This document shows, one piece after another, positions 652-16,443 of a stretch of 21,087 bases of DNA. Every line of letters begins with the position of its first letter. The stretch's first letter is position 1. Location: the NCBI GenBank assembly GCA_002386405.1, contig DGIP01000094.1:1-21087 (forward strand), given 5' to 3'. The notes beneath the pieces were generated by a model. It did not search any database and had not been told where the DNA came from. It worked only from the letters and a program-made list of their open reading frames with translations. A program made the translations under genes and the position numbers. This DNA is from Stenotrophomonas maltophilia (lineage in GTDB: Bacteria; Pseudomonadota; Gammaproteobacteria; Xanthomonadales; Xanthomonadaceae).

Positions 652-1104
652 ATGCTCCGCGTCACCAAGCTTACCGATTACGCCACCGTCGTCCTGACCG
701 TCCTTGCCGCTCGCCCGGGCGAGGTACTCAGTGCGACCGAACTGGCCGAATTTGCCAGCCTCGAGCCGCCCACCGTGAGCAAGCTGCTCAAGCCGCTGGC
801 GCAGGCCGGGCTGGTGGAAGGCCTGCGCGGCGTGCGCGGCGGCTACCGGCTGACCCGCCGCCCCGACCAGATCAGCCTGTTCGAGATCGTCGAAGCCATG
901 GAGGGCCCGCTGGGCCTGACCGAGTGCGCGCACGACCACAGCCAGTGCGGACGCGAGCTGCAGTGCGGCGCGCGCAGCAGCTGGCGGATGATCAACGACG
1001 TGGTGTCCGACGCACTGCGCAAGGTCACCCTGGCGCAGATCCTGCCCCCTCTTCCCCTTGTTGACGCCCCCCGCCGCGTGATCGCGGCGGATGTCGTCTC
1101 CTGA
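652..1104 (+). CDS. Rrf2-family SUF operon regulator (Fe-S sensor)
   Basis: A 150-aa Rrf2/IscR-like transcription factor. The winged-helix DNA-binding domain occupies about residues 1-75: a LTDYA start typical of the family, a recognition helix around [11 protein letters not shown] (39-49), and the RGVRGGYRL wing (59-67). Cys92, Cys99 and Cys105 match the three-cysteine [2Fe-2S] ligand cluster of IscR-type sensors, so the protein probably senses Fe-S supply. It is first in the operon and lies 16 nt before the preferred sufB start, the arrangement of the Xanthomonad SUF regulator family (distinct from cyanobacterial SufR). The C-terminal tail after about residue 132 is proline-rich and low in complexity, and its codons contain a perfect hairpin (1071-1090). 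No gene symbol is given because naming in this family is inconsistent. Confidence 0.93.
1071..1090 (+). other. perfect GC hairpin at regulator/sufB junction
   Basis: CCGCCGCG (1071-1078), a TGAT loop, then CGCGGCGG (1083-1090) form a perfect 8-bp stem ending immediately before the ATG at 1091. It overlaps the last codons of the regulator gene. There is no T-run, so it is not a classical terminator. It would bury initiation at 1091, which favours the downstream sufB start at 1121, and it could act in mRNA processing or attenuation between regulator and suf genes. Confidence 0.5.
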
Positions 1105-1120
1105 TCCACAGGCAGCCCCC

Positions 1121-2596
<1,476 letters not shown>

Positions 2597-2622
2597 TACG
2601 CCGCGGCTTCGTTTTGCATTTT

Positions 2623-2645
2623 TGCCACGCAGGGCGTGGCACTAC
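2623..2645 (-). repeat. GTAG-type REP palindrome (copy 2) between sufB and sufC
   Basis: On the minus strand GTAG (2645-2642) is followed by TGCCACGC, a 3-nt loop and GCGTGGCA, a perfect 8-bp stem. It has the same architecture as the copies near 1-26 and 5963-5987, with a different stem sequence. It occupies most of the only real gap inside the suf operon, so the polycistronic mRNA would carry this hairpin between sufB and sufC. Confidence 0.75.
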
Positions 2646-2678
2646 GCGGCCTTTGGTTCGCATATTGGAAAGAACATC

Positions 2679-3443
2679 ATGCTGAAGATTGACAACCTCC
2701 ACGCCCGCATCGGCGACAAGGAAATCCTCAAGGGCCTGTCGCTGGACGTGAAGCCGGGCCAGGTGCACGCCATCATGGGCCCCAACGGCGCGGGCAAGTC
2801 CACGCTGGGCAACGTGCTGGCCGGCCGCGAAGGCTATGACGTCAGCGAAGGCGGCGTGCAGTTCGAAGGCCGCGACCTGCTGGAGCTGGCGCCGGAAGAA
2901 CGCGCCGCCGCCGGCCTGTTCCTGGCCTTCCAGTACCCGGTGGAAATCCCCGGCGTGAACAACACCTACTTCCTGCGCGCCGCGCTCAACGCCCAGCGCA
3001 AGGCGCGTGGCGAGGAAGAACTCGATTCCATGCAGTTCCTCAAGCTGGTGCGCCAGAAGCTGGCCGTGCTGCACCTGAAGGATGAGCTGCTGCACCGTGG
3101 CGTCAACGAAGGCTTCTCCGGGGGCGAAAAGAAGCGCAACGAGATCTTCCAGCTGGCCGTGCTCGAGCCGAAGCTGGCGATCCTGGACGAGACCGACAGC
3201 GGCCTGGACATCGACGCGCTCAAGAGCGTGGCCGACGGCGTGAACGCGCTGCGCTCGCCGGACCGCTCCTTCCTGGTCATCACCCACTACCAGCGCCTGC
3301 TCGATTACATCAAGCCGGACGTGGTGCACGTGCTGGCTGACGGCAAGATCGTGCAGAGCGGCGGCCCCGAACTGGCCCTGGAACTGGAAGCCCACGGCTA
3401 CCACTTCCTGAAGGACCGCGTGGTGCCGGAGGCAGCGGTCTGA
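2679..3443 (+). CDS. sufC: SufC, ABC-type ATPase of the SUF complex
   Basis: A 254-aa ATPase that powers conformational change in SufBC2D; it is cytoplasmic and has no membrane partner despite the ABC fold. Visible motifs are Walker A GPNGAGKST (about residues 34-42), the Q-loop in FLAFQYP, the ABC signature FSGGEKKRNEI with the SufC-typical KKR, Walker B LAILDETDSGLD and the H-loop ITHY. The ATG at 2679 is chosen because a GGAAAG ribosome-binding site lies 6 nt upstream and MLKIDNLHA is the usual SufC N-terminus; the frame is open further upstream but that part is untranslated. The stop overlaps the sufD start by 1 nt (TGATG), indicating translational coupling. Confidence 0.97.
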   Translation: MLKIDNLHARIGDKEILKGLSLDVKPGQVHAIMGPNGAGKSTLGNVLAGREGYDVSEGGVQFEGRDLLELAPEERAAAGLFLAFQYPVEIPGVNNTYFLRAALNAQRKARGEEELDSMQFLKLVRQKLAVLHLKDELLHRGVNEGFSGGEKKRNEIFQLAVLEPKLAILDETDSGLDIDALKSVADGVNALRSPDRSFLVITHYQRLLDYIKPDVVHVLADGKIVQSGGPELALELEAHGYHFLKDRVVPEAAV

Positions 3444-4705
3444 TGAGCGCCCTGCTCGATTCCCTCGCCGCCGGCTTCTGCGGCAGCGACGCCCGCCGCG
3501 CCGAGCTCGATTCCGCCCTGCAGGCCGGCCTGCCGGGCCCGCGCAGCGAAGCCTGGAAGTACACCTCGCTGCGCCAGCTCGAACGCCGTACGTTCCAGCC
3601 CGCGCCGCTGGCCGCGCCCGAGATCGACCCTGCCCTGCTGGCCGACATTCCGTCGCCGCGGCTGGTGTTCGTCAACGGCCGCCCGTCCGCCGCGCACAGC
3701 GACGTGTCGGCACTGCCGGCCGGCGTGCAGGTACAGACCCTGTCCTCGGCGCTGGCCGCCGGTGAGGAAGCCCTGCGCTTCCTGGGCCGCCGTTTCGAGC
3801 GCAGCGAAGAAGTCTTCGCCCGCCTCAACGCCGCCCTCGCCGATGAAGGCGTGCTGGTGCGCGTGGACGACGGCGTGCAGGTTGAAACCCCGCTGCAGCT
3901 GGTCTTCATCAGCGCCGCCGGTGGCAGCGACCTGGCCTGGCATCACCGCCACCTGATCGAACTGCGGGCCGGTGCCGCGCTGGGCGTGGTCGAGCATCAC
4001 CTGGATGCCGGCGATGCCGCGCACCTGGGCAACACCCTGGTGCACGTGCACCTGGCCCAGGACGCGGTGCTCTCGCACGCCCGCGTGCAGGCCGATGGCA
4101 GCCGTGCCACCGCGCTGCTGCGCACCGATGCCGTGCTGGCCCGCAACGCGCAGTACCGCCGCGTGGACCTGGAGCTGGGCGCCGCGCTCAGCCGCCACGA
4201 ACTCAACGTGCGCCTGGAAGGCGACAACGCCCAGCTGACCGCCAACGGCGTGCTGCTCGGCAACGGCCGCCGCCATGTCGATACCCGCCTGGGCATCGAA
4301 CACATCGCGCGCGATACCGCCTCGGAAATGGTGTGGCGTGGCGTGGCCGCCAACCGCAGCCGCGTGGTCTTCCACGGCGGCATCCACATCCGTGCCGGCG
4401 CCGATGGCACCGACGCCAACCTCTCCAACAAGAACCTGCTGCTCTCGGCCGACGCCGAAATCGATACCCAGCCCACGCTGGTGATCGACGCCGACGAGGT
4501 GAAGGCCGCACACGGCGCCACCGTCGGCCAGCTCGATGCCAACGCCCTGTTCTACCTGCGCTCGCGCGGCCTGCCGGCCCAGCAGGCGCAGCAGCTGCTC
4601 AGCGCCGCGTTCTGCCACGAGCCGCTGAACGTGCTCGACGCACGCCTGACCGAACAGCTGCGCCGCCAGCTGGACCTCGCGCTGGCCAAGGCAGGCGTGG
4701 CATGA
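3443..4705 (+). CDS. sufD: SufD, Fe-S cluster scaffold subunit
   Basis: A 420-aa SufD, the partner of SufB in the SufBC2D complex, needed for iron acquisition and cluster formation at the SufB-SufD interface. The N-terminal helical region contains SEAWKYTSL (about 35-43), diagnostic of SufD. The C-terminal beta-helix contains AAHGATVG, in which His357 corresponds to E. coli SufD His360, implicated in cluster assembly. The residue before this histidine is Ala where E. coli has Ser, and the nearby Cys of E. coli (KCSHG) is also Ala here, so that cysteine is dispensable in this lineage. The start overlaps sufC by 1 nt and the end overlaps sufS by 4 nt (ATGA). Confidence 0.96.
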   Translation: MSALLDSLAAGFCGSDARRAELDSALQAGLPGPRSEAWKYTSLRQLERRTFQPAPLAAPEIDPALLADIPSPRLVFVNGRPSAAHSDVSALPAGVQVQTLSSALAAGEEALRFLGRRFERSEEVFARLNAALADEGVLVRVDDGVQVETPLQLVFISAAGGSDLAWHHRHLIELRAGAALGVVEHHLDAGDAAHLGNTLVHVHLAQDAVLSHARVQADGSRATALLRTDAVLARNAQYRRVDLELGAALSRHELNVRLEGDNAQLTANGVLLGNGRRHVDTRLGIEHIARDTASEMVWRGVAANRSRVVFHGGIHIRAGADGTDANLSNKNLLLSADAEIDTQPTLVIDADEVKAAHGATVGQLDANALFYLRSRGLPAQQAQQLLSAAFCHEPLNVLDARLTEQLRRQLDLALAKAGVA

Positions 4706-6663: not shown

Positions 6664-7002
6664 TCAGCCCGACTCAACCTGCCCCGCAGACCTGATCCTG
6701 ATCACACCACGCGTCGCTACACCATCGCCGGAAAGGGCGGAGCTACCGACTGGAAAAGCCACCTTCGAATCAGTTTCATTGAAGAAGGAGATCCAACATC
6801 TAACGGTTTGTCCTGGGTGAACAGTATCGACAGCAGAATCATTGAGCACGAATCCGTACCATGTCACGCCACCCTCCATGCTGACCGCAGACGGGCGAGC
6901 AGTGCTGTGATCCAACGGACGCAGAGACGCCCCCCTTGAATCCACTTGATCGAGAGACAAATCGACAAGCGTCCGCGGCATCTCGACCCTTTGCTCTCCC
7001 AT
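6664..7002 (-). CDS. small hypothetical protein at Rhs locus, candidate immunity or accessory protein
   Basis: A 112-aa predicted soluble protein. The C-terminal half is beta-rich, including VHPGQTVRCWISFFN and a Gly/Val-rich end (GVATRGVIRI). The alternation of a PGQ turn, a long strand and a terminal G-x-I-x-I strand recalls small EF-Tu domain 3-like beta barrels, but this is only a shape impression and no family is claimed. ATG 7002 has GAGGA 9 nt upstream; ATG 6981 has GGG 5 nt upstream and is an equally good start. It lies 73 nt after the probable immunity gene. No partner can be assigned. AT-richer codon use matches its locus neighbours. Confidence 0.5.
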   Translation of the reverse strand: MGEQRVEMPRTLVDLSLDQVDSRGASLRPLDHSTARPSAVSMEGGVTWYGFVLNDSAVDTVHPGQTVRCWISFFNETDSKVAFPVGSSALSGDGVATRGVIRIRSAGQVESG

Positions 7003-7075: not shown

Positions 7076-7600
7076 TCAGCGCCGTGACAGCGGGTCAAGC
7101 AGTCCATCGATATAGGCTCCAAGCCCAACTACATCCACAGCTCCTCCGATCAGATCGTCATCCATCATCTTCCTGACCTGGGCAACCCCGCCCAGTCTGT
7201 CGGCCACAGATCGCATGAAATCCAAAGTCCCCAGAAAGAGCGTCGTGTCCTGATCGAGTCGGACAATCCAACTCTTGTCGAGAGAGAATAGATAGTGATC
7301 GCGAAGGAAATTGGTGTTCTCATCCCAGTACGCACGAACAGAGTCCATGTCTGCCTTGACGTGAACCATCCTCAACGTATCAACCTTGTTTCCGCACCTA
7401 ACCGCACCGAGGCCAGCCGGATACCCTGACACGTCGTTGTGCACCCCTAGCCAGCATGTCCAGACGACTTCGGGCGCCAGATCTTCATGCAGCGTTCGAT
7501 CAAAAGCCATGCCAGCCCATCCCCGCGCCGCGAATGGCAGATCAGGTGGCATCGTCGGAAGCACGACAGACTCTATAAAGTCCAGCCAGTCAGAGGCCAT
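7076..7600 (-). CDS. probable immunity protein for the Rhs tip
   Basis: A 174-aa acidic, tryptophan-containing cytoplasmic protein without a signal peptide or membrane segment; no named immunity family is recognised. Its ATG lies inside the end of the tip gene, an 11-nt overlap, with a TAGGGAAA ribosome-binding site 3-4 nt upstream. This overlap is the normal place and coupling of the cognate immunity gene in Rhs/CDI-type polymorphic toxin loci. The expected action is binding and neutralising the variable C-terminal domain of the upstream protein in the producing cell. Size and acidity fit, but the assignment rests on context. Confidence 0.7.
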   Translation of the reverse strand: MASDWLDFIESVVLPTMPPDLPFAARGWAGMAFDRTLHEDLAPEVVWTCWLGVHNDVSGYPAGLGAVRCGNKVDTLRMVHVKADMDSVRAYWDENTNFLRDHYLFSLDKSWIVRLDQDTTLFLGTLDFMRSVADRLGGVAQVRKMMDDDLIGGAVDVVGLGAYIDGLLDPLSRR

Positions 7601-8486
7601 TGCTTTCCCTATTTTTTCTGATGTAACGGACGGTTACGGGGATCTTACTCCCCGTTACCATGACTTTGATCGTCGGAGTTTTCTGAGGAACAAGGCCATC
7701 GGGATGTGGTTTAGTGCTGTCGTGACGGTTTACGTGCGTGCCCCCTGGCAGCGTTAGATTCTCTTGATCACCTCTGACGCCTGGCGTCTCTCTAATTCTC
7801 TGCCAATCCGCCTCTATATCATCGGGATCTCCCTGCAACTCCCCCTTGACCCCCGCCTGACCGGGCGCGGGAGTCTTTCCCTTCACGAGATCGTCGATGA
7901 TTGGCTGATCGGGGTTTGGTGGTGGCGCTGGCTCGTTGTGCTGACTCTGCGCAGCTGCGTTTGAAAACATACGCCCGAGGTATGCGCTGGAAATCAGCGC
8001 GGTGGCCGTAAGCGCCTCGCCTACTGTGTGGATCTCTCCTTCGCACCTTGTTTCACCACACTTCACCGCCCTGCCGTCCGGATCTGTATAGCGGTACGGG
8101 TTGCTGTTCGCATACCGATACCGTCCAAACTGAGTCGGCCAACCTGAAACTGCCTGAACAGGATCGGCGCTAATGAACGTTCCCAGGTGTGGGTCCATGT
8201 ATCGTTGTTGCATGTAGCTTAGGCCGGTAGCAGAGTCGGCGACGTGCCCGGTGTAGCCCGGGCTATCGGTGACTGCGCTGTTTACGACCGCACCGTATGG
8301 CTCGTAAACAGTCCGCTCGATCACATCACCGCCGGCATCGGTCATCACCACTGGCGACCCCAAGGCATCAGTGTGAATGTACTCCACCACTTCCTGGGCG
8401 CCGACTGTGTTCAGTGTCGAAGTCGACAGCAATAGGGCCAAAAGCCCGCGCATCACCACGTTCGTCATCCTGATCGTATTCATCAT
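7590..8486 (-). CDS. Sec-exported Rhs core domain protein with C-terminal toxin-like tip
   Basis: A 298-aa protein holding the end of an Rhs protein as a separate gene. Residues 1-30 are a signal peptide (MRGLLALLL hydrophobic core, cleavage after TVGA). Residues 34-139 are the Rhs-associated core: YIHTDALGSPVVMTD, YEPYGAVV, GYTGHVAD, LSYMQQRYMDPHLGTFISAD, and the closing NPYRYTDPDGR. Beyond it are a short hydrophobic helix (160-174), a Pro-rich linker (187-212) and a unique C-terminal domain (213-298) with LTLPGGTHVNRH and a final strand VTVRYIRK. The tip family is not recognised, so the toxic activity is unknown. Its ATG overlaps the TGA of the big YD-repeat gene (ATGA). In normal Rhs proteins this module is continuous with the repeats; here it has its own start and export signal. 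Confidence 0.85.
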   Translation of the reverse strand: MMNTIRMTNVVMRGLLALLLSTSTLNTVGAQEVVEYIHTDALGSPVVMTDAGGDVIERTVYEPYGAVVNSAVTDSPGYTGHVADSATGLSYMQQRYMDPHLGTFISADPVQAVSGWPTQFGRYRYANSNPYRYTDPDGRAVKCGETRCEGEIHTVGEALTATALISSAYLGRMFSNAAAQSQHNEPAPPPNPDQPIIDDLVKGKTPAPGQAGVKGELQGDPDDIEADWQRIRETPGVRGDQENLTLPGGTHVNRHDSTKPHPDGLVPQKTPTIKVMVTGSKIPVTVRYIRKNRESNGL

Positions 8487-11400
8487 TCAGTCTCGTAGAC
8501 GCCGCGCGTGGGGGTAAAAAGTGGCGACCATTCGGAGCACCCGCCGGCGTTGCAAGCCCGCACGCGTATCGGCGACCCACAGTACGCATTTCCGGCTGCG
8601 GCCACGTAGTCCTTAGGGCCCGTATACAGGTGTTTGCCGCCCACACCGGTTTCCAGCTGATACTCAGTCGCAGTCGCGACAGGGTGCCAACCCGCCTCGC
8701 ACCACACCTGATAGGGCGCGCGCTTGGTGGTCAACCAGGTAGCTATGTAGAACACCGGCGTACTCGGCGGAAGCGACACGGTCACTGTTGCAACACCGGA
8801 CCAGGGCCCGCACCCGACAAAGTTACAGGCCTGTGCGCGATAGCTGTAACTGCCGTTGCCACGACTGACGGCTGCGGACGTGCGCCCATCCGCCAGCAAC
8901 GTGTTCCACCCACCACCGTTGGCACTCTCCTGCACGATGAAGTACTCCGTGGTGGCTGGCGTGCTCCAGCTGAAGGCGTAGTCGGTAACGTTCACCAGAC
9001 CGGGTGCAGTGATCACCGGCTCCAGGCTCGGCGGCCCGATGACAGATACGTTCGCGGTACTGGACCAGCCGCCGCACCCAGCGCCGTTGCAGGCAGCTAC
9101 CCGATACGCGTAGTTGCCCACGCCACGATAGGGTGTTGCGTAGGACGTCGCGTTGGCATCCGGCAGCGTGACCCAGCCTGAACCATTGGCGCTTTCCTGC
9201 AGGGTGTACCTGCTTGCACCGCCAATCGCGCTCCAGCCGATGCCGATGCTTCCCGGACCGGAACGCGCTGGCGCACTCAGCCCGCTCGCTGCTCCGGGGG
9301 GATACACGACCGAAACAGATGCAGTCGCGCTGTATCCCGTGCAACCAACCGGATTACAGGCGCGCACCCGGTAGCTGAAGCTTCCTGCGGGCTTGCCCCC
9401 TATGCTTACCGAGAGCGGCGCCGCATTGTGGATCACGCTCCAGGCGCCGCCACTGGCACTTTCTTCCAGTTGATAGGTCGTAGCACCAGCCGATGCCGAC
9501 CAGCTCACGGAGTAGCTGCCGTTGTAAGCGACGCCAGGGAGGCTTAACGCCGGTGCCGAGCTGGGCGGAAGCTCTACTGCCACACTTGCCGTATTACTCC
9601 AGCTGCCGCAGACCTCACGGCAGCCCAGCACACGGAACTGATAGGTACCCGTCTGAAGGCCGCTGGCGGAGAACGCCAACGCGCTGCCGCTGTATATCGC
9701 GACCCAGTTTCCGCCCGTCCCCTGCTGCAGTATGTACCGGTTCGCACCACCGGAAGCAGTCCACGTAAGGGTCACGCTTCCCTGTGTGATGTAGCCGGGC
9801 GCGCTGAGCACGGGAACGCTCGGCGTGGCATCTCCGCTGACCTTGGCAACCAGGCTGCCGGACAGATACATGTAGTCGGTCTGTTTACCGGTTCGCTCGT
9901 TTCGCTGGAAGCGAAGGACACCTGCATTGTCGTAGAACGAATAGATGGCGCCGCTCGACGCAGACATTGACTTGACCCGGCGCCCGTGAGCGTCGTACTC
10001 GTAGCTTTCAGCACCTGCCACGCTGCGCAGGCGGTTGCCGTAGTCGAAGGCAAATCCCTGGCCGTTGCGGACAGACAGGTTGCCCTGCACGTCGTAGCCC
10101 AAGCCAGTCACGGTGCCGCCGTTGGCGGTGTCCATCACGTTGACCAGCCGGTTGGCGGGATCGAAGTAGTGCGTGCGGTCGCGACTGCCGACCCTGGCTC
10201 TGCGCAGGTTGTCCAGCGCATCGTATTCGTACAGGGCATTGCCAAAGCTTGGCGCAGTGACGTTGCGCAGGCGATCCAGGCCGTCATAGGACATATCTCG
10301 GTTGCCGGGCGCGCCGGGCAGTCCGTCGGAGATGGCCACCACGTTTCCGCCTGCGTCGTAGTCGTAGCTGTCATCGTGGACGGCACCAGCGGCGTTGGCA
10401 TCGCGGCTTCGCTCAGGCAGTCCGCGTGCATTCTGGACCATGGTGTGGGCAATGCCATTGCCATAGGTAAACCCCGCCAGCGCGCCGTTGGCGTGGTAGC
10501 TGGCTTGCTGCGCATAGGTACCCACCTGGGTGGTGCGACCCAGGGCGTCGGGCGAGTAGCCCACCTCGCGCCAATCCGGATAGGTGTGCCCTTCGAGGTT
10601 GCCGTTCGCGTCATACCGGTAGAAGAAGCTGAGCGTTCCCAGACTGGAATGCTCCATGCTCTCCCCGATCAGCAGGCGCCGCCGGTTGTAATAATACCGA
10701 TTGATCACCGGCAACATGGCGGGATCGTTTCGGGTGTACACCTCCACGGGCAGGCCATCTGGCGTGTAATACCAGCTCTGGTTGCCGCGACCGTCGGGGA
10801 ACTTCAGTTCGAACAGGCGGTTGACAGCGTCGTAGCTGCGCGTGACGGCGCGGCCACTGGCCAATGCTTGGGTGCGGCTGCAGTCGGTAGCGCTGGTCAA
10901 TCCCGTACCTGAAGCCGACCAGGCCACGTTGCCAGCCGCGTCGAACTCCTGCACGGTAGCCCCGGTCTCTGGTTCGATCGTCTTGCACAGCTGCTGATAG
11001 CCGTCGTAGACATAGCGCCGGGTCAGCGCCTGGCTACCGTCTGCATTGCGCCGGGTGATTGCCAACGGCTTGCCCAGTGCATCGCGCTGGATCTCGGTAA
11101 CCACACCCTCCGGGTTCTGGATCGTCAGCGGCATCTCATAGGCTGGCTGGTCGTAGGCCAGATGCCGTGTCACGGTTGCAAGACCGCGAGGATTGGTCGT
11201 CCTTACCGACAGGTTGCCGATGTAGTCCGTCGCGCTCACCAGCTCTCCAAGTTCGGAGGTCTGCCGAGCGATCGTCGGGCGCCCAAGCGCGTCGTACTGC
11301 GTGGTTGTTCCGGGAACGGTCTGTGCGATGTTGGACAGCTGACGTGTCGGGTACGAGGCGAACACCGCGCGACCACTGTTGTCGTATCGCGTCACCACCG

Positions 11401-13813
11401 CACTGTCCAGCGCGTTGTTTACGTTCTGCGTTACCAGCACCGGACGGAACATCGCGTCCAGGTAGGTATCCGTTCGCTGCCCTCCCAAGGTCCTGGAATG
11501 CTTCCATGCCCCTGCGGGAACGCCGAACTGCGCCGCGGTCATCCGCTGCAGGTTGAGGACCGCCGACGTCCATGCGACCGTATCATTCGCAGGGAACTGC
11601 TGCGAAATCAGCCTCCCCATGGAGTCGTAACCGTATCGGGTGGTGGCCCCTGTTTCGTCGGTAAGCGCAGTGATCCAGCCGTTGTCATCAACCTCTACCT
11701 GCCGCGTGGCGCCATTCAGAGCCTCCTGAGTCGGCGGGAACCTCAAGAGCTGCGGCACGCCGCGCTTCCAACTGGACAGATGACTGGTGTTGCCTCGTCC
11801 ATCGGTTGCCGTGGCTACAGTCCCATCGGCGGCATAGCTGACCTGCTGGTTCAGGCGCCCAAACGCATAGGCTCGCAACGGCAGCGCAGTGCTTGTATCG
11901 AACTCGGTGCGCGACTGCTTGATGCCGTTAAGTACGGTGCGGGCGGGCTGCCCCCGCACCCAAAGCTGCGGATTGTCGTAGTACTGTGTTGTGGTGCTGC
12001 GGCTCTGCCCGGCCGAGTTGGACTCAACCACGTCGACCTCACGCACCGAGGCATCGAAGGTCTGCACTTGACGGGTGAACTGCACGCCATCCTGATTGAC
12101 GACAGTGCTTTGCACCGGGCGGTTGAGGTGTTCACCCAGCTCCGTGGCGCCATACTTCAGGTTCTGACCGGCCGCCTGCGGGAACGGCGCAGAGGGCAGC
12201 TGCGCGTCAGGGTAGTAATTCTTGCGGTCAATCCGCACTACCGTTCCGCCGATGCTCGTCGTGGTGGCCAGCAACAGGCCATCGTTGTACGCAACTTCCT
12301 TACCGAATTCGTGAGTACGGATCACCCCATCCGGCGTGGTCTCAATCGTGATCTTTGGCTCGGATTGGCCAACTGGGTACATCGGCGAACCTGCCGCGTT
12401 CACATTCCGATCGTACTGGCCTACCAGGTTGGTGTACTCATAGGTCCACTGGGCGGCAGGTATTCCAGGACCACTGATGGTCTTGGTCACCAGTGACATC
12501 GCGTCGCGATAGATCGGCGTGAGGTTCCAGCCGTCAGCAATCAGCTGGTCATCACCGGACGTCTGGCAGTTGAATGGAACGTTCTTGCGGCCGTGTCGGA
12601 AGGGACGAAACGCGAACGTGCCCACTGCGCCGGAAGGATGGGTGATGCTGGCAACAATCTCCGTTTGGATGATCTTGTTGGTCTTGGCGCACACGGCCGG
12701 GTTGTCCATGTACTCGGACGGAGCCTGACCGATGTAGTCGGGATATTTCTTGGTCACGTACACCGACGGAAGGCTGTAACTCCAGCTTGTACCATCGGGC
12801 AGAACGACGGACTGAAGCGGGCCGGCGGGTGAATACGCGTATGTCCAGGTGCGGTTTGCGGTGGTAACCGTTGCAATACGCCCCTTTGCGTCGTAAGCGA
12901 GCGCAATGCTGCGGCCGTCGCTGGCAATGATGCGATCCAGCCGACCGGCGCTCCATTCGTAGCGCACCCAGTTCCCAAATCGGTCAACCACCTGCGAAGG
13001 GTAGAGAGTCACCTTCTTCCGGTTCAGCGTGGCGTGGGTAATGGTGTCGTAGGGCTGAAGGGTGGCCGGCTCGTTGTAGCGCACCACCATCCAGTCGAAG
13101 TAGTACTTCGTGCCGTCTGGCGCATGACCAAGGAAGCCCTGTCCTGGCTGGCCGCTCTTGAGCGCGTTGAGGCAGGAGAAGAACCACCCGCCCTTGGTAT
13201 TCCAAGGGGTTGGCTGGCCAACCTGCGGGACTGGCTGGCGCGGATCCCCGCTGCCAGCGAGCACCGTCTCACCCTGGCCGCCGGGCAGCGACAGCCGGAC
13301 CCCATCCCAATAAGTGTGCGGGTCAAAATAGATCTTCTGCGTATGCTGGGTGTTCCAGACCTCCAGCGTTGGCGGCGCAGCCACCGTCGAACAGCGTGCA
13401 CTTGGACTCCAGTAACCTTCGACCTCTGTCTCGGGTTGGTCACCGTAGGTGCCCGACAGCGAAGGTAGATCCAACGACCAGTTGCCAAACTCGTTGTCGT
13501 TGGCATTTCCAGACATGTCGCCGTAGCTGCGACTGATCGACACGTCCAGACTGTTGTTGCCCGGCACGGAGATGTCGGTGGCGCTGAGGCTCATCGAACC
13601 GTCGTACAGATTGACCTTCTCGCCGAAGATCTCCCCCTTCATTGGCTCTACCAGATCGCCATATTTCAGGCGCTTTTCATACTCTGAGCGCCACGTCGGC
13701 ACGATCTGTGCCTGGACGGCCAAGGGCATCAGCACGCTGGCTGCAACGAGAAGGAGGGCCAAACGGCCCACCGGGCGACACAAGCGGGAACGGTCATACG
13801 CAGTCAATTGCAT
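8483..13813 (-). CDS. large Sec-exported YD-repeat (Rhs) protein with FN3-like C-terminus
   Basis: A 1776-aa protein. The start at 13813 is preferred over an ATG at 13879 because GGAGG lies 6-7 nt upstream and it gives a clean signal peptide (hydrophobic residues about 17-33, cleavage near VQA-35). Residues about 40-330 form an Rhs N-terminal sheet region (VNLYDGSMSL, YDAKGRI). YD repeats run to about 1316, with many copies such as YDSMGRLISQ, YDALGRPTIA, YDAVNRLFEL, YDANGNLEGH and YDAHGRRVKS. The repeats stop at MYLSGSLVAKV and are followed by about five fibronectin-III-like modules to the C-terminus. No PAAR, VgrG or T6SS domain is present, so export is by Sec. The core domain that should follow is encoded by the next gene. 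Probably forms a periplasmic or surface Rhs cage; function is inferred. Confidence 0.9.
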   Translation of the reverse strand: MQLTAYDRSRLCRPVGRLALLLVAASVLMPLAVQAQIVPTWRSEYEKRLKYGDLVEPMKGEIFGEKVNLYDGSMSLSATDISVPGNNSLDVSISRSYGDMSGNANDNEFGNWSLDLPSLSGTYGDQPETEVEGYWSPSARCSTVAAPPTLEVWNTQHTQKIYFDPHTYWDGVRLSLPGGQGETVLAGSGDPRQPVPQVGQPTPWNTKGGWFFSCLNALKSGQPGQGFLGHAPDGTKYYFDWMVVRYNEPATLQPYDTITHATLNRKKVTLYPSQVVDRFGNWVRYEWSAGRLDRIIASDGRSIALAYDAKGRIATVTTANRTWTYAYSPAGPLQSVVLPDGTSWSYSLPSVYVTKKYPDYIGQAPSEYMDNPAVCAKTNKIIQTEIVASITHPSGAVGTFAFRPFRHGRKNVPFNCQTSGDDQLIADGWNLTPIYRDAMSLVTKTISGPGIPAAQWTYEYTNLVGQYDRNVNAAGSPMYPVGQSEPKITIETTPDGVIRTHEFGKEVAYNDGLLLATTTSIGGTVVRIDRKNYYPDAQLPSAPFPQAAGQNLKYGATELGEHLNRPVQSTVVNQDGVQFTRQVQTFDASVREVDVVESNSAGQSRSTTTQYYDNPQLWVRGQPARTVLNGIKQSRTEFDTSTALPLRAYAFGRLNQQVSYAADGTVATATDGRGNTSHLSSWKRGVPQLLRFPPTQEALNGATRQVEVDDNGWITALTDETGATTRYGYDSMGRLISQQFPANDTVAWTSAVLNLQRMTAAQFGVPAGAWKHSRTLGGQRTDTYLDAMFRPVLVTQNVNNALDSAVVTRYDNSGRAVFASYPTRQLSNIAQTVPGTTTQYDALGRPTIARQTSELGELVSATDYIGNLSVRTTNPRGLATVTRHLAYDQPAYEMPLTIQNPEGVVTEIQRDALGKPLAITRRNADGSQALTRRYVYDGYQQLCKTIEPETGATVQEFDAAGNVAWSASGTGLTSATDCSRTQALASGRAVTRSYDAVNRLFELKFPDGRGNQSWYYTPDGLPVEVYTRNDPAMLPVINRYYYNRRRLLIGESMEHSSLGTLSFFYRYDANGNLEGHTYPDWREVGYSPDALGRTTQVGTYAQQASYHANGALAGFTYGNGIAHTMVQNARGLPERSRDANAAGAVHDDSYDYDAGGNVVAISDGLPGAPGNRDMSYDGLDRLRNVTAPSFGNALYEYDALDNLRRARVGSRDRTHYFDPANRLVNVMDTANGGTVTGLGYDVQGNLSVRNGQGFAFDYGNRLRSVAGAESYEYDAHGRRVKSMSASSGAIYSFYDNAGVLRFQRNERTGKQTDYMYLSGSLVAKVSGDATPSVPVLSAPGYITQGSVTLTWTASGGANRYILQQGTGGNWVAIYSGSALAFSASGLQTGTYQFRVLGCREVCGSWSNTASVAVELPPSSAPALSLPGVAYNGSYSVSWSASAGATTYQLEESASGGAWSVIHNAAPLSVSIGGKPAGSFSYRVRACNPVGCTGYSATASVSVVYPPGAASGLSAPARSGPGSIGIGWSAIGGASRYTLQESANGSGWVTLPDANATSYATPYRGVGNYAYRVAACNGAGCGGWSSTANVSVIGPPSLEPVITAPGLVNVTDYAFSWSTPATTEYFIVQESANGGGWNTLLADGRTSAAVSRGNGSYSYRAQACNFVGCGPWSGVATVTVSLPPSTPVFYIATWLTTKRAPYQVWCEAGWHPVATATEYQLETGVGGKHLYTGPKDYVAAAGNAYCGSPIRVRACNAGGCSEWSPLFTPTRGVYETE
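8486..9830 (-). repeat. five FN3-like modules with paired cysteines
   Basis: Within the large YD-repeat protein, five modules of roughly 88-90 aa repeat. Each ends in a strand of the type R-V/A-x-A/G-C, a short spacer, C, then W/Y-S: GCREVCGSWS, ACNPVGCTGYS, ACNGAGCGGWS, ACNFVGCGPWS and ACNAGGCSEWS. Modules begin with proline-rich hinges (PPSSAP, PPGAAS, PPSLEP, PPSTPV) and share Y-x-L/V-Q/E-E-S-A-x-G-G-x-W. The last module has a degenerate first half. The DNA copies have diverged, so this is an old protein repeat rather than a recent tandem duplication. The cysteine pairs fit disulfides in an exported protein. Confidence 0.75.
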
Positions 13814-13972
13814 TACAAGCCTCCGGTGGTCGGCGCACAGGCGTGCGACGCAGGTGGAGGTTGAGAGCTGGGTGCGCATCTCCGGCCCGCCTTATCGGCA
13901 GGAAGAAAATTTGGTTCCCGGAGTGCCTTGCTTTCGATTCCCCCGAAGCGGCGACACGTCTTGCAGGGGGCT

Positions 13973-14002
13973 GTTATCAAGTAGCCGACTGTGCATCGTC
14001 AA
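13973..14002 (-). promoter_or_regulatory. possible promoter of the Rhs locus
   Basis: On the minus strand, TTGACG (14002-13997) and GATAAC (13978-13973) are 18 nt apart, matching 5 of 6 and 4 of 6 consensus bases. It would give a 5' leader of roughly 150 nt before the GGAGG-ATG of the YD-repeat gene. No better candidate was seen nearer the gene. A weak call from consensus matching only. Confidence 0.3.
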
Positions 14003-14145
14003 AAGGCATTTGGCTGACAAAATTCCTTTCTGGAAAACCATAGAAAAATCAAGGTCATCCAATCAGCGTTTCGTAGGGCTTTCCCTACACGCCCCGTAGT
14101 TGCCGTTACGGCACCTGACGTAATCCGCACAAATTGCGCACTGCC

Positions 14146-14175
14146 GCCGCCGGCACTCCGCATCATGCCGGCGGC
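14146..14175 (+). other. GC-rich hairpin upstream of tonB
   Basis: GCCGCCGGC (14146-14154) and GCCGGCGGC (14167-14175) form a perfect 9-bp stem with a 12-nt loop, ending 12 nt before the Fur palindrome. The left arm also takes part in an alternative smaller hairpin, TGCCG/CGGCA (14142-14155). No T-run follows. It may insulate the tonB promoter, but no function can be shown. Confidence 0.4.
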
Positions 14176-14187
14176 CCCGGCGTGTCA

Positions 14188-14208
14188 TAATGAGAACCCT
14201 TCTCATTA
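14188..14208 (+). promoter_or_regulatory. Fur box of tonB (perfect palindrome)
   Basis: Left arm TAATGAGAA (14188-14196), spacer CCC, right arm TTCTCATTA (14200-14208): a perfect 9-3-9 inverted repeat closely matching the Fur consensus core AATGAGAA/TTCTCATT. It overlaps a -10-like CATAAT (14186-14191) and ends 10 nt before the tonB ATG, so Fe(II)-Fur would block initiation directly. The sequence is seen; Fur control is inferred from the consensus and from the gene controlled. Confidence 0.85.
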
Positions 14209-14218
14209 ATCTCGCTGG

Positions 14219-15013
14219 ATGTCGTCGGTCGCCCCCTGTGCCGCGAGCACCCCACCTCTGCACGCTTACCTGCAGGGCCTGTACCCAGGCGTCCCCGGCC
14301 GTGCGCGGGCACGCGCCTCGTTCACCGAACGCCATGCGCGCACGCTCGCCGGTAGCCTGACCGTGCTGGCCCACGCGGCCGCCATCGCGCTGCTGCTCTG
14401 GACCCACGTTGCCAGCACGCCGGTGCTGCCGCCTCCGCCGGCCGACCGCACCCAGCTGGTGCTGCTGCCCCCGCGCGCCCCGGAAGTACCGCTGGAAGAC
14501 ATCGTCGCGCCCACCCCCAGCACGGCCGCCACGCTCCAGCAGCAAAAGCCGGAACCCCCGCGCGACCTGCCCAGGACGCCGCCGCGCGAGACGGCCCACT
14601 GGGTGATCCCGCCACCGACCCCGCCGCAGCCCAAACCGGATTCGCCAGCGCCGCTGCAGCAGCAGGCCTCGGTCGCCGCGTCGCCGCCCAGCCCACCGCT
14701 GCCGCCCGGCCCCAGCGAGACCACGCCCGGACGCGACAGCTGGGAAGGCCGGGTCATGGCGCGGCTGGAACGCTTCCGTCGTTACCCCCACGCCGCGCGG
14801 GCGCGCCGCCATGAGGGCATCGTGCAGGTACGGGTGAGCTTGGCCCGCGATGGCCAGCTGCTTGCGCTGGCGGTGGAGCAGAGCTCGGGCTACGCGATGC
14901 TGGACCAGGCCGCGCTGGATACCTTCCGCCGGGCGGCACCGTTGCCGGCCGTGCCGGATGACCGGCCGGCACCGGTGGAACTGTCGTTCCCGGTGGAGTT
15001 CTTCATCCGCTGA
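14219..15013 (+). CDS. tonB: TonB, energy transducer for outer-membrane receptors
   Basis: A 264-aa TonB-family protein that transmits proton-motive force from ExbBD to outer-membrane receptors, anchored in the inner membrane. One transmembrane segment (about 44-66) contains T48-V-L-A-H52, matching the S/T-x3-H pattern of E. coli TonB, where His20 is essential. A Pro-rich periplasmic stretch (67-170) follows, then the TonB C-terminal domain (175-264) with RRYPHAARARRHEG, VRVSLARDG and SSGYAMLDQAALDTFRRA. exbB and exbD are not adjacent. A perfect Fur palindrome ends 10 nt before the ATG. No ribosome-binding site is visible, so the mRNA may have a very short leader; the first about 35 residues are poorly typical. 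Its likely clients include the receptor encoded at 17046-19343. Confidence 0.93.
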   Translation: MSSVAPCAASTPPLHAYLQGLYPGVPGRARARASFTERHARTLAGSLTVLAHAAAIALLLWTHVASTPVLPPPPADRTQLVLLPPRAPEVPLEDIVAPTPSTAATLQQQKPEPPRDLPRTPPRETAHWVIPPPTPPQPKPDSPAPLQQQASVAASPPSPPLPPGPSETTPGRDSWEGRVMARLERFRRYPHAARARRHEGIVQVRVSLARDGQLLALAVEQSSGYAMLDQAALDTFRRAAPLPAVPDDRPAPVELSFPVEFFIR

Positions 15014-15030
15014 GCGCCCGCGCAGGCGTG

Positions 15031-15456
15031 CTATTCGGTCAGCGCCGTGCGCATCTCCCGCTCGATCTGCTCGACCAGCAGCAGGTTGGCATGCACCGGC
15101 TCGCGCTCATAGGCGCGTTTGGCCGCGTCCTGGGCTTCGGCCAGCAGACGAAAGCGCGCCTCGGCACTCTCCGCCACCCGCGCGGAAGCGAAACGCGACG
15201 CCGCCTGGTAGTAGAGCTCCTGGACATCGCCCAGGTCGCGCGCGCGCTGCCGCCAGCGCGCGGCCGGCACGTCATTGCCGGGGGTGGCTTCGTAGTGCGC
15301 GATCAGCCGCTTGATCGCCACCAGGTCGTCATCCTTGGCGGCGGCGGTCACCACGGCCAACTGGCGGGGCGACAGGTAGCGGTCGTCCGTCGGGGGGCCT
15401 TCACCGCAGCCGGGCAGCGCCAACAGAAACACGCAGGACAGGAGAATGGACTTCAT
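15031..15456 (-). CDS. small putative lipoprotein, function unknown
   Basis: A 141-aa predicted lipoprotein: MKSILLSCVFLLALPGC has a lipobox LPGC with Cys17 as the acylated residue and Gly/Glu at +2/+3, compatible with outer-membrane sorting. ATG 15456 is chosen over an open frame reaching 15552 because it gives this clean signal and has AGGA 10 nt upstream. The mature part (about residues 20-141) is charged and mostly helical, with Ala-rich helices (ARFRLLAEAQDAAKRAYE) suggestive of TPR- or Sel1-like packing but without a clear repeat. The family is not recognised. It is convergent with tonB; the stop codons are only 17 nt apart, so the two transcripts must share or overlap their ends. Confidence 0.8.
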   Translation of the reverse strand: MKSILLSCVFLLALPGCGEGPPTDDRYLSPRQLAVVTAAAKDDDLVAIKRLIAHYEATPGNDVPAARWRQRARDLGDVQELYYQAASRFASARVAESAEARFRLLAEAQDAAKRAYEREPVHANLLLVEQIEREMRTALTE

Positions 15457-15565
15457 AGCCGCACGATCCTGACAGTGCCCGGCCCGCACGGCCAACGCAC
15501 CGTTCCTATCAAAAAGCGGCATTGCATAGGCAGCGCCACTGCTACCCGCCACCGGCGCCCCGCTC

Positions 15566-15571
15566 TAGAAT
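15566..15571 (+). promoter_or_regulatory. possible -10 element for a leaderless GNAT transcript
   Basis: TAGAAT (15566-15571) matches 5 of 6 bases of the -10 consensus and ends 6 nt before the ATG at 15578. Transcription from it would begin at or next to the A of the start codon, giving a leaderless mRNA. No ribosome-binding site is present upstream, which agrees. No good -35 was found. Confidence 0.35.
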
Positions 15572-15577
15572 GACGGC

Positions 15578-16114
15578 ATGAGCACCCTGACCTTCCGTGC
15601 GGCCACGCTGGCCGACATTCCCGCCCTCATCACCCTGGTCACCTCGGCCTACCGCGGCGACGCCAGCCGCGCCGGCTGGACCACCGAAGCGGACATGCTG
15701 GACGGCGCGCGCATTGACGCAACCGGCCTGCAAGCCGATATCGAGCGCCCGCGCAGCACCGTCCTGCTGGCCGAACGCGACGGCCAGCTGCTGGCCTGCG
15801 CGCATGTGGCCGATGACCACGGCAAGGGCTACTTCGGCATGTTTTCGGTGGACCCGGCCCAGCAGGGCGGCGGCATCGGCAAGCAGGTGATGGACGCCGC
15901 CGAAGCCCACGCCGCGCGCGAATGGGGCGTGCCGGTGATGCAGATGACGGTGATCGACATCCGCGACGAGCTGATCGCTTTCTACGAACGCCGTGGCTAC
16001 CAGCGTACCGGCATCAAGAAGCCGTTCCCGTATGGGGATGAGCGCTTCGGCATTCCCAAGCGCGACGACCTGCGCTTCGAGATCCTGGAAAAGCCGCTGG
16101 CGGCCCACGCATGA
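15578..16114 (+). CDS. GNAT-family N-acetyltransferase
   Basis: A 178-aa single-domain acetyltransferase that uses acetyl-CoA; the substrate cannot be predicted. The N-terminus LTFRAATLADIPALITLV (4-21) is the usual beta1-alpha1 of GNAT. Motif A is GMFSVDPAQQGGGIGKQVMD (about residues 87-106) with the Q-x-x-G-x-G pyrophosphate loop. Motif B includes ELIAFYERRGYQRTG (about 131-145). The ending FGIPKRDDLRFEILEKPL is a common tail in proteobacterial homologues. No ribosome-binding site precedes the ATG. The stop overlaps the start of the Rieske gene by 4 nt (ATGA), so the two are translated together. Confidence 0.92.
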   Translation: MSTLTFRAATLADIPALITLVTSAYRGDASRAGWTTEADMLDGARIDATGLQADIERPRSTVLLAERDGQLLACAHVADDHGKGYFGMFSVDPAQQGGGIGKQVMDAAEAHAAREWGVPVMQMTVIDIRDELIAFYERRGYQRTGIKKPFPYGDERFGIPKRDDLRFEILEKPLAAHA

Positions 16115-16443
16115 GCGAGACCTGGACCTTCGTCTGCGCCACGGCCGAGCTGCTGCCGGGCGAGATGAAGAGCACCTTCGACGAGGTCACCGGGACGCCG
16201 ATCGTGGTGTTCAACCTGGACGGCGAGCTGTACGCCCTTGAAGACCAGTGCACCCACGAGGAATTCGAGCTGTCCTCGGGCACGTTCGATACGGAGGAAG
16301 GCAGCATCGAATGCGTGCTGCACAGCGCGCGCTTCGATGTGCGCGATGGCCGTGCCCTGTGTGCCCCGGCCTATACGGCGGTGCCGAAGTTTCCGGTGAA
16401 GCGGGAGTTCGACGGCGTCTGGACCCGCGACGACCGCGACTGA
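16111..16443 (+). CDS. Rieske [2Fe-2S] ferredoxin-type protein
   Basis: A 110-aa soluble Rieske protein of the kind annotated as the ferredoxin subunit of non-heme iron oxygenases. The cluster ligands are complete: Cys47-x-His49 (DQCTHEEFEL) and Cys68-x-x-His71 (ECVLHSARFDV). One whole Rieske domain fills the protein; there is no oxygenase or reductase gene nearby. It probably carries electrons in the cytoplasm for an unknown partner. It overlaps the GNAT gene by 4 nt. Fe-S dependence makes it a client of the SUF system at the other end of the window, and these two genes may once have been closer to the suf operon (inference). Confidence 0.93.
   Translation: MSETWTFVCATAELLPGEMKSTFDEVTGTPIVVFNLDGELYALEDQCTHEEFELSSGTFDTEEGSIECVLHSARFDVRDGRALCAPAYTAVPKFPVKREFDGVWTRDDRD

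What the first reader, a model, noticed from the sequence alone, without database searches (positions are those of the whole stretch)
7590..13813. Rhs protein split into two separately exported chains at the FN3/core boundary
The YD-repeat protein stops after its FN3-like modules, and the Rhs core domain plus toxin-like tip begins as a new gene through an ATGA overlap, each with its own signal peptide (cleavage before Gln in both). In canonical Rhs toxins, repeats, core and tip are one chain because the YD cage folds around the tip. Here the tip would enter the periplasm as an independent polypeptide and would have to assemble with the cage in trans. The reading frames are intact and the signal peptide is well formed, so this looks like a designed bipartite toxin rather than a frameshift. 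Whether it is toxic or a structural secreted protein is inference.
Basis: partly seen in the sequence, partly recalled or inferred. Interest (0 to 1): 0.8.

Follow-up and report, generated by a model that had tools for sequence, protein, structure and literature searches.

The report
Exported toxin capsule in separate parts
A bacterial toxin that is usually one protein folded around its own toxic tip is here encoded as two separately exported proteins, a capsule and a swappable toxic cap, and the same cut recurs in many related bacteria, so the toxin is probably put together outside the cytoplasm.

Summary
In detail: chain 1 (13813-8483, minus strand) is signal peptide + YD shell + FN3-like tail without RHS core; chain 2 (8486-7590), started in an ATGA overlap, is signal peptide + RHS end-cap/autoprotease core + tip; an immunity-like gene follows. 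It is not decay. Of the 120 best-matching shells, 119 lack a core; the one fused, P0273, equals chain 1 + chain 2 end to end without FN3. 19 of 32 adjacent shell/cap pairs share a 4-nt overlap. Related shells are also cut at two other points, with signal-like N-termini on nearly every piece. Best reading: chain 2 is an exchangeable cartridge that closes chain 1's barrel in trans after Sec export; release by type II secretion is likely. Xanthomonas bacteriocin Bcn-A (PMC7259588) appears to be the same kind: its YD gene and its small Rhs-like gene are both needed for killing; in the passages I read its authors describe no split Rhs. Trans assembly, secretion and toxicity are inferred here. Seven of 28 Stenotrophomonas genomes with lone caps lack a coreless shell. 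TcB/TcC is a two-chain precedent cut elsewhere.

The parts
8483..13813 (-). Chain 1: exported YD shell without RHS core (1776 aa from this ATG; the longest ORF starts at 13879)
   Evidence: P0241 has the 1776-aa length
13709..13813 (-). Chain 1 signal peptide, cleavage before Gln (heuristic)
9830..13684 (-). YD shell region (SHELL HMM from residue 66; ends near residue 1350, where the match to fused P0273 ends at 1346)
   Evidence: Foldseek to teneurin-like protein, Rhs and TcB-TcC structures for residues 607-1798
8486..9811 (-). FN3-like tail, about five modules with a conserved Cys pair; absent from the fused relatives examined at the junction
8483..8486 (-). ATGA: stop of chain 1 overlapping start of chain 2
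   Evidence: same 4-nt overlap in 19 of 32 adjacent pairs
7590..8486 (-). Chain 2: signal peptide + RHS core + tip (298 aa)
8397..8486 (-). Chain 2 signal peptide, cleavage before Gln (heuristic)
8067..8396 (-). RHS core = end cap and aspartyl autoprotease region of the shell (residues 31-140)
   Evidence: CORE HMM; profile match to the cap of solved YD shells, e.g. 5kis_B 580-692
8073..8099 (-). PxxxxDPxG motif, P130-G138; the other DP is D108-P109 at 8160-8165
   Evidence: D108, P136, G138 invariant and P109, P130, D135, D137 at 90% or more in 48 sequences; motif and catalytic role from passages of PMC13018210 and PMC8765631
7593..8066 (-). Variable tip; residues 191-290 predicted as a confident alpha/beta domain
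   Evidence: pLDDT 86-96 in 10-residue blocks; no Pfam match
7076..7600 (-). Immunity candidate, 174 aa, overlapping the end of chain 2 by 11 nt
   Evidence: homologues directly follow homologous tips in L034 (= L189), L188 and L168 (= L005); no Pfam match
6664..7002 (-). Second (orphan) immunity candidate, 112 aa
   Evidence: its homologue follows a core+tip ORF in L126 whose tip has no match to the window tip

Best explanation
This is a two-chain, Sec-exported YD-shell polymorphic toxin (bacteriocin-like). Chain 1 is exported and folds into a YD barrel that lacks its end cap, with an FN3 tail where the cap would continue. Chain 2 is exported separately; its core is the missing cap and autoprotease and carries the tip. 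The chains join in the periplasm, the tip ends inside the barrel, the autoprotease cuts it free, and the complex leaves the cell, most likely by type II secretion. A downstream immunity protein protects the producer. The cut turns core + tip + immunity into a cartridge that can be swapped without touching the shell gene. Shown here by sequence: the split, its recurrence, collinearity with a fused relative, constraint on both chains, tip swapping under near-identical shells, tip/immunity linkage. Inferred: assembly in trans, autocleavage, route out, toxicity.
For: Fused relative P0273 = chain 1 residues 30-1346 (60% identical) followed directly by chain 2 residues 29-139 (66%), without FN3. Coreless shells and stand-alone cores go together: of 61 Stenotrophomonas genomes 21 have both, 0 shell alone, 7 core alone, 33 neither (sets read by hand; Fisher p 9.7e-11); of 20 Xanthomonas genomes 15 have both, 5 neither (read by hand). 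19 of 32 adjacent pairs have an in-frame ATGA/GTGA overlap. dN/dS 0.059-0.143 for shells in 15 pairs and 0.064-0.261 for cores in the 11 pairs not saturated (for the window only the shell could be computed, 0.137-0.138). L123/L124: shells 97% identical, tips 21%; within loci with several caps (23 pairs) cores 71-94% identical, tips 12-28%. AF2: shell chain confident without the cap (mean pLDDT 87.7), cap not confident without the shell (10-residue blocks 31-54). The cap corresponds to the C-terminal region that spirals inside and seals solved cocoons. Bcn-A (PMC7259588, passages): YD gene ORFA (1398 aa) and ORF4 (290 aa, signal peptide, identity to WapA/RhsA) are each needed for killing, ORF5 gives immunity, xpsD (T2SS) mutant inactive, activity in the supernatant. 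The host genome has a T2SS GspE over cut-off and a GspD piece at a contig edge; no TssB match.
Against: 7 of 28 Stenotrophomonas genomes with stand-alone cores show no coreless shell, and several lone caps are broken by stops, so some caps are orphans or remnants. Low AF2 confidence of the cap alone can also reflect the alignment, and no two-chain model could be run. Bcn-A's identity with this layout rests on gene order, sizes and description; its printed primers did not anchor in the fetched loci and the printed ORF4 peptide gave only a weak best hit (E 0.0086, 43% over 37 aa), though inside a stand-alone core+tip ORF. Bcn-A also needs ORF2; the small exported genes found beside all 11 short shells are absent beside all 35 long ones like the window's and the one tested has no credible match in the window's genome (E 0.2). 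Shell/core identity correlates less in split pairs (Spearman 0.436, 31 loci) than in fused ones (0.673, 25 loci). T2SS exit and toxicity were not tested for this locus.
Confidence: 0.7

Rival explanations
1. Chain 2 is an independent exported toxin; its core is a vestige and the shell gene next door is a separate adhesin or structural protein.
For: 7 of 28 Stenotrophomonas genomes have stand-alone core+tip genes but no coreless shell; in 9 of 19 fetched stretches of a second family no shell lies beside the lone core.
Against: No genome in the two genus sets has a coreless shell without a stand-alone core (0 of 61, 0 of 20); cores stay under constraint with invariant autoprotease residues; Bcn-A killing needs both genes (PMC7259588).
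Confidence: 0.12
2. The stand-alone core+tip genes are a silent cassette store that must recombine into a shell gene to act, like orphan rhs-CTs.
For: Several caps per locus with alike cores and unrelated tips; some copies broken.
Against: Each has its own start and a signal-like N-terminus (89 of 94); the first cap often shares a 4-nt overlap with the shell stop (19 of 32); type III shells end in FN3 modules and have no fused core to replace.
Confidence: 0.1
3. The split is decay, a frameshift or an assembly error.
For: One related shell (L034 = L189) is interrupted in several frames, so decay happens in the family.
Against: 119 of 120 nearest shells lack the core; a signal peptide and FN3 tail sit at the joint; recurrence in several genera and a second family; constraint on both chains.
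Confidence: 0.02
4. The two chains do assemble, but as a secreted adhesion or signalling protein, not a toxin.
Against: Tips are hypervariable and paired with a linked downstream gene; other tips of the family carry nuclease-type Pfam domains such as PF01844 and PF14279; Bcn-A kills (PMC7259588).
Confidence: 0.1

Closest known systems
Bcn-A bacteriocin locus of Xanthomonas perforans (PMC7259588; abstract, outline and passages read)
   Same: YD-repeat gene without reported core, later small gene with signal peptide and WapA/RhsA identity, immunity gene, both needed for killing, supernatant activity lost in the T2SS mutant; fetched Xanthomonas loci with this order and size (L106-L110, L113-L118) are type III splits.
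   Different: Window shell is longer (five FN3-like modules), chain 2 overlaps it directly, and no small exported genes lie between. The authors treat ORFA as the toxin and ORF4 as delivery or processing.
TcB/TcC of Tc (ABC) toxins (PMC8765631 passages; solved structures)
   Same: One YD cocoon made of two chains; the second carries cap, autoprotease and toxin.
   Different: Cut elsewhere: the cap starts at residue 580-596 of the TcC-type chains 5kis_B and YenC2, but at residue 31 of chain 2 here. Sec signal peptides, FN3 tail and no TcA partner here are from sequence/recall; no Tc sequence was fetched.
Single-chain Sec-type YD proteins: bacterial teneurin-like proteins (PMC13018210 passages), WapA
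   Same: Exported YD shell with core motif PxxxxDPxG, C-terminal toxin and downstream immunity gene; best Foldseek match of chain 1 is a TLP (9ifo, E 4.7e-29).
   Different: Those are one chain.
T6SS Rhs effectors such as RhsA (PMC8765631 passages)
   Same: YD barrel, cap, autoprotease, toxin tip.
   Different: No PAAR hit, Sec signals instead, two chains.
Orphan rhs-CT cassettes (PMC2935791, PMC3967940; search listing only)
   Same: Displaced tips with repeated core sequence.
   Different: Here each has its own start and signal-like N-terminus.

Membership tests
Rhs/YD-shell polymorphic toxin | YD repeat shell | tested here: met
Rhs/YD-shell polymorphic toxin | RHS-associated core with PxxxxDPxG motif | tested here: met
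   TIGR03696 over cut-off, PF03527 just under; motif
Rhs/YD-shell polymorphic toxin | hypervariable C-terminal tip | tested here: met
Rhs/YD-shell polymorphic toxin | cognate immunity gene downstream | tested here: inconclusive
   linkage of tip and 174-aa gene in three other genomes; function untested
Rhs/YD-shell polymorphic toxin | shell, core and tip in one chain (usual, not general: TcB/TcC) | tested here: not met
   this is the variant feature, so it is filed as a variant
Bcn-A type locus | coreless YD shell plus separate signal-peptide Rhs-like small protein plus downstream gene | tested here: met
   Bcn-A side from paper text only
Bcn-A type locus | two small exported genes between shell and cap (ORF2 essential in Bcn-A) | tested here: not met
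   ATGA overlap in the window; absent beside 35 of 35 long shells; so the window works like Bcn-A but is not of its sub-type
Bcn-A type locus | release by type II secretion | not testable with these tools
   T2SS genes present
Tc toxin (TcB/TcC) | cut inside the YD shell, second chain with several hundred residues of shell | tested here: not met
   cap starts at residue 31 here, 580-596 in TcC-type chains
Tc toxin (TcB/TcC) | TcA translocator partner | not tested
   no search made
T6SS Rhs effector | PAAR/VgrG link and T6SS | tested here: not met
   no PAAR hit on either chain; no TssB match in a genome 83% complete (absence inconclusive on its own)
Bacterial teneurin-like protein | FN-plug and NHL propeller before the shell, single chain | tested here: inconclusive
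   single chain not met; residues 1-606 were not modelled

The most novel reading that the evidence does not exclude
A family of Sec-exported YD-shell toxins in the Xanthomonas/Stenotrophomonas/Lysobacter order is a mix-and-match kit: the shell is repeatedly cut at three recurring points (SHELL HMM about 545, 861 and 1275), pieces keep their own signal peptides, and in the type seen here one shell can be closed in trans by any of several exported cap-plus-tip cartridges of the same cell. FN3 modules (or small exported proteins in the Bcn-A-like type) take the place of the lost covalent link.
Probability: 0.45. Interest if true: 0.82.

Novelty: new variant of a known kind. Interest (0 to 1): 0.66.

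Why it matters
YD-shell toxins are understood as cages that fold around their own tip. If the cap and tip are exported apart and close the barrel in trans, then encapsulation of a toxin does not need co-folding in one chain, one shell can serve several warheads without recombination, and the long-unexplained multi-gene requirement of Bcn-A gets a direct, testable explanation. It also gives natural cut points for studying how such cages close.

Tried and rejected
Frameshift or decay: rejected by relatives, overlap and constraint. Single-chain-only view of Rhs: rejected by TcB/TcC. T6SS delivery: no PAAR, Sec signals, no TssB match. PADLOC: no match for four ORFs. Bcn-A primers: no useful anchor; scattered matches with 1-3 mismatches in seven loci at positions that do not order as the locus would. 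Plasmid collection: only matches under 60% identity, not examined for a split. Small exported ORFs of the Bcn-A-like loci: no family over cut-off and no PDB match for the one tried. Transmembrane-like stretch after the core as a general feature: only 29 of 110 stand-alone and 8 of 69 shell-linked tips, not the window's own, so not general. Bcn-A reports two such helices in ORF4. Structure of the two-chain complex: not possible with the tool; AF2 jobs used on chain 2 and residues 607-1798 of chain 1. Literature searches for a multi-chain or split Rhs listed no paper that describes one beyond Tc toxins; abstracts and listings only, apart from the four papers of which I read passages, and subscription papers are largely missing.

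Limits of the counts: the loci were picked by hand from search tables by open-frame length (lone core, fused, or intermediate), so class numbers are not prevalences. In one search eight duplicate loci, left-open ORFs and partial cores were left out. In one search, 103 of 108 segments were used (near-copies over 98.5% and short ones dropped); the tree is a quick one with long branches and 25 of 100 inner branches open, and cannot tell gain from loss. The genus co-occurrence sets were read by hand from capped tables (lone core = E under 1e-25 and short open frame without shell match); two members of the shell set are damaged or truncated (G237 in pieces, G029 N-terminally short). Signal peptides come from a heuristic of mine.
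Full report
What is in the window. On the minus strand lie two open genes. Chain 1 (8483-13879; 1776 aa from the ATG at 13813) has a signal-like N-terminus, a YD-repeat region and a C-terminal FN3-like tail, and no RHS core. Chain 2 (7590-8486, 298 aa) starts in a 4-nt ATGA overlap with the stop of chain 1, has its own signal-like N-terminus, the Rhs_assc_core domain and a tip. The core keeps the two DP motifs of the aspartyl autoprotease: D108, P136 and G138 are invariant and P109, P130, D135 and D137 at least 90% conserved in 48 sequences. A 174-aa gene overlaps the end of chain 2 by 11 nt, and a 112-aa gene follows.

Is the split real and old? Of the 120 best-scoring relatives of chain 1 listed (the window's own included), 119 carry no core by my HMM. 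The exception, P0273 (1595 aa), aligns with chain 1 residues 30-1346 at 60% and then directly with chain 2 residues 29-139 at 66%, with no FN3 in between. So the two chains are collinear with one fused relative, and the split form has gained a signal peptide on one side and FN3 modules on the other. Of the 120 best relatives of chain 2 listed, one carries shell sequence in the same protein.

How widespread? I built HMMs for the shell (1326 positions) and core (111) and annotated loci around hits in the window's genus, Xanthomonas, other genera of the family and a second family of the order. Loci were chosen by hand by open-frame length, so the classes are not prevalences. Five layouts appear: fused (about 1650 aa); cut near SHELL 545 (about 600 + 1060-1240 aa); cut near 861 (about 900-1000 + 880-1370 aa; one at about 770); cut before the core near 1275, with FN3 tail (the window's type); and cut at both 545 and 1275. 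Signal-like N-termini were found on 41 of 43 coreless shells, 89 of 94 stand-alone core+tip ORFs, 8 of 8 middle chains, 12 of 12 and 16 of 17 C-chains with core, 35 of 36 N-chains and 20 of 25 fused proteins; controls 22 of 1278 internal Met and 154 of 1285 other ORFs. Of 32 shell/cap pairs within 250 nt, 19 have an in-frame ATGA or GTGA overlap; of 28 N/C-chain pairs, 11. In the second family, 9 of 19 fetched stretches have a full coreless shell upstream of the lone core, 9 none in the stretch, 1 is cut by a contig end.

Evolution. On a quick tree of 103 shell segments the five layouts need at least 29 changes (4 would be the least possible); supported branches alone force 7 for the window's type. 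Fission and fusion, or exchange of pieces between loci, were thus frequent; direction is not known. Both chains are constrained: dN/dS 0.059-0.143 for shells in 15 pairs, 0.064-0.261 for cores in the 11 pairs that were not saturated; for the window itself only the shell value exists. L123 and L124 have shells 97% identical but tips 21% identical. In 23 comparisons of caps sharing a locus, cores are 71-94% identical, tips 12-28%, the signal region 20-100%. The window's tip and its 174-aa neighbour occur together in three other genomes, twice on a lone cap and once (L168) on a larger C-chain that includes shell sequence. So tip and immunity candidate travel together across layouts.

Do shell and cap depend on each other? 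In 61 Stenotrophomonas genomes, 21 have a coreless shell and a lone core, none a coreless shell alone, 7 a lone core alone, 33 neither (hand-read; p 9.7e-11). In 20 Xanthomonas genomes 15 have both and 5 neither (hand-read). The one-way rule fits a shell that needs a cap; the 7 exceptions (G124, G163, G212, G231, G242, G245, G252) show that caps persist without a partner, as orphans, remnants or with a partner I could not detect. Some lone caps are interrupted by stops.

Structure. AF2 models residues 607-1798 of chain 1 with mean pLDDT 87.7 without any cap; the best Foldseek matches are a bacterial teneurin-like protein, T6SS Rhs barrels and teneurins, with TcB-TcC further down and a four-FNIII fragment among the hits. 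Chain 2 alone has blocks of 31-54 across residues 31-140, but 86-96 across 191-290. The cap region matches by profile the C-terminal region of solved YD shells (5kis_B 580-692, E 3.6e-12), the part which in RhsA, Tc toxins and teneurins spirals inside and seals the cocoon (PMC8765631 passages). Low confidence of the cap alone agrees with a part that folds only on its shell, but may also be a modelling weakness; no complex was modelled.

Functional precedent. In PMC7259588 (abstract, outline and passages; [quoted passage not shown] ORF3 loss reduces activity; ORF5 gives immunity; an xpsD mutant is inactive and activity is in the supernatant. In the passages read the authors take ORFA for the toxin and ORF4 for a helper. 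Eleven fetched Xanthomonas loci have a coreless shell of about 1400 aa, one or more small exported ORFs, a signal-peptide core+tip ORF and a downstream gene, and all 11 short shells have these small ORFs nearby while 35 of 35 long ones do not. The ORF4 peptide printed in the paper found its best, weak match (E 0.0086) inside such a stand-alone core+tip ORF. I therefore read Bcn-A as a two-chain YD toxin of which ORF4 is cap and warhead. This is inference: I did not see its sequence.

Mechanism. Sec export of both chains (heuristic), capping of the barrel in trans in the periplasm (inferred), autocleavage (motif only), exit by type II secretion (Bcn-A precedent; GspE over cut-off and a GspD piece in the host bin), protection by the 174-aa protein (linkage). 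The tip's activity is unknown: no Pfam match.

Novelty. TcB/TcC already shows a two-chain cocoon, cut elsewhere. Six searches of open full texts listed nothing that describes recurrent cutting of exported YD shells or cap cartridges; that is a statement about those searches only. I file it as a new variant of YD-shell polymorphic toxins.

Noticed in passing
[not shown]
   Followed up: partly
window 6664-7002: 112-aa gene whose homologue (41%) follows a core+tip ORF in L126 whose tip has no match to the window's: looks like an orphan immunity gene for an absent tip.
   Followed up: partly
L105-L111, L113-L118, L138, L139 between shell and cap: Families of small exported proteins (about 100-150 aa) beside short-tailed shells and three-chain loci, never beside the 35 long-tailed shells; no known family over cut-off. 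Their role, needed in Bcn-A as ORF2, is unexplained.
   Followed up: partly
L034 / L189 (G237): A shell 77% identical to the window's, with the same tip and immunity gene, is interrupted in several frames while its cap is open. Only described.
   Followed up: no
L188 (G231) 7325-16430: Three caps, one with the window's tip type, in a genome without a detected coreless shell.
   Followed up: partly
L174: Two N-chains in a row before one C-chain with core: possible choice of N-chain as well.
   Followed up: no
window 652-4705 and 14219-16114: Neighbours are ordinary: Rrf2 regulator, SUF FeS assembly genes, TonB C-terminal domain protein, GNAT acetyltransferase.
   Followed up: no
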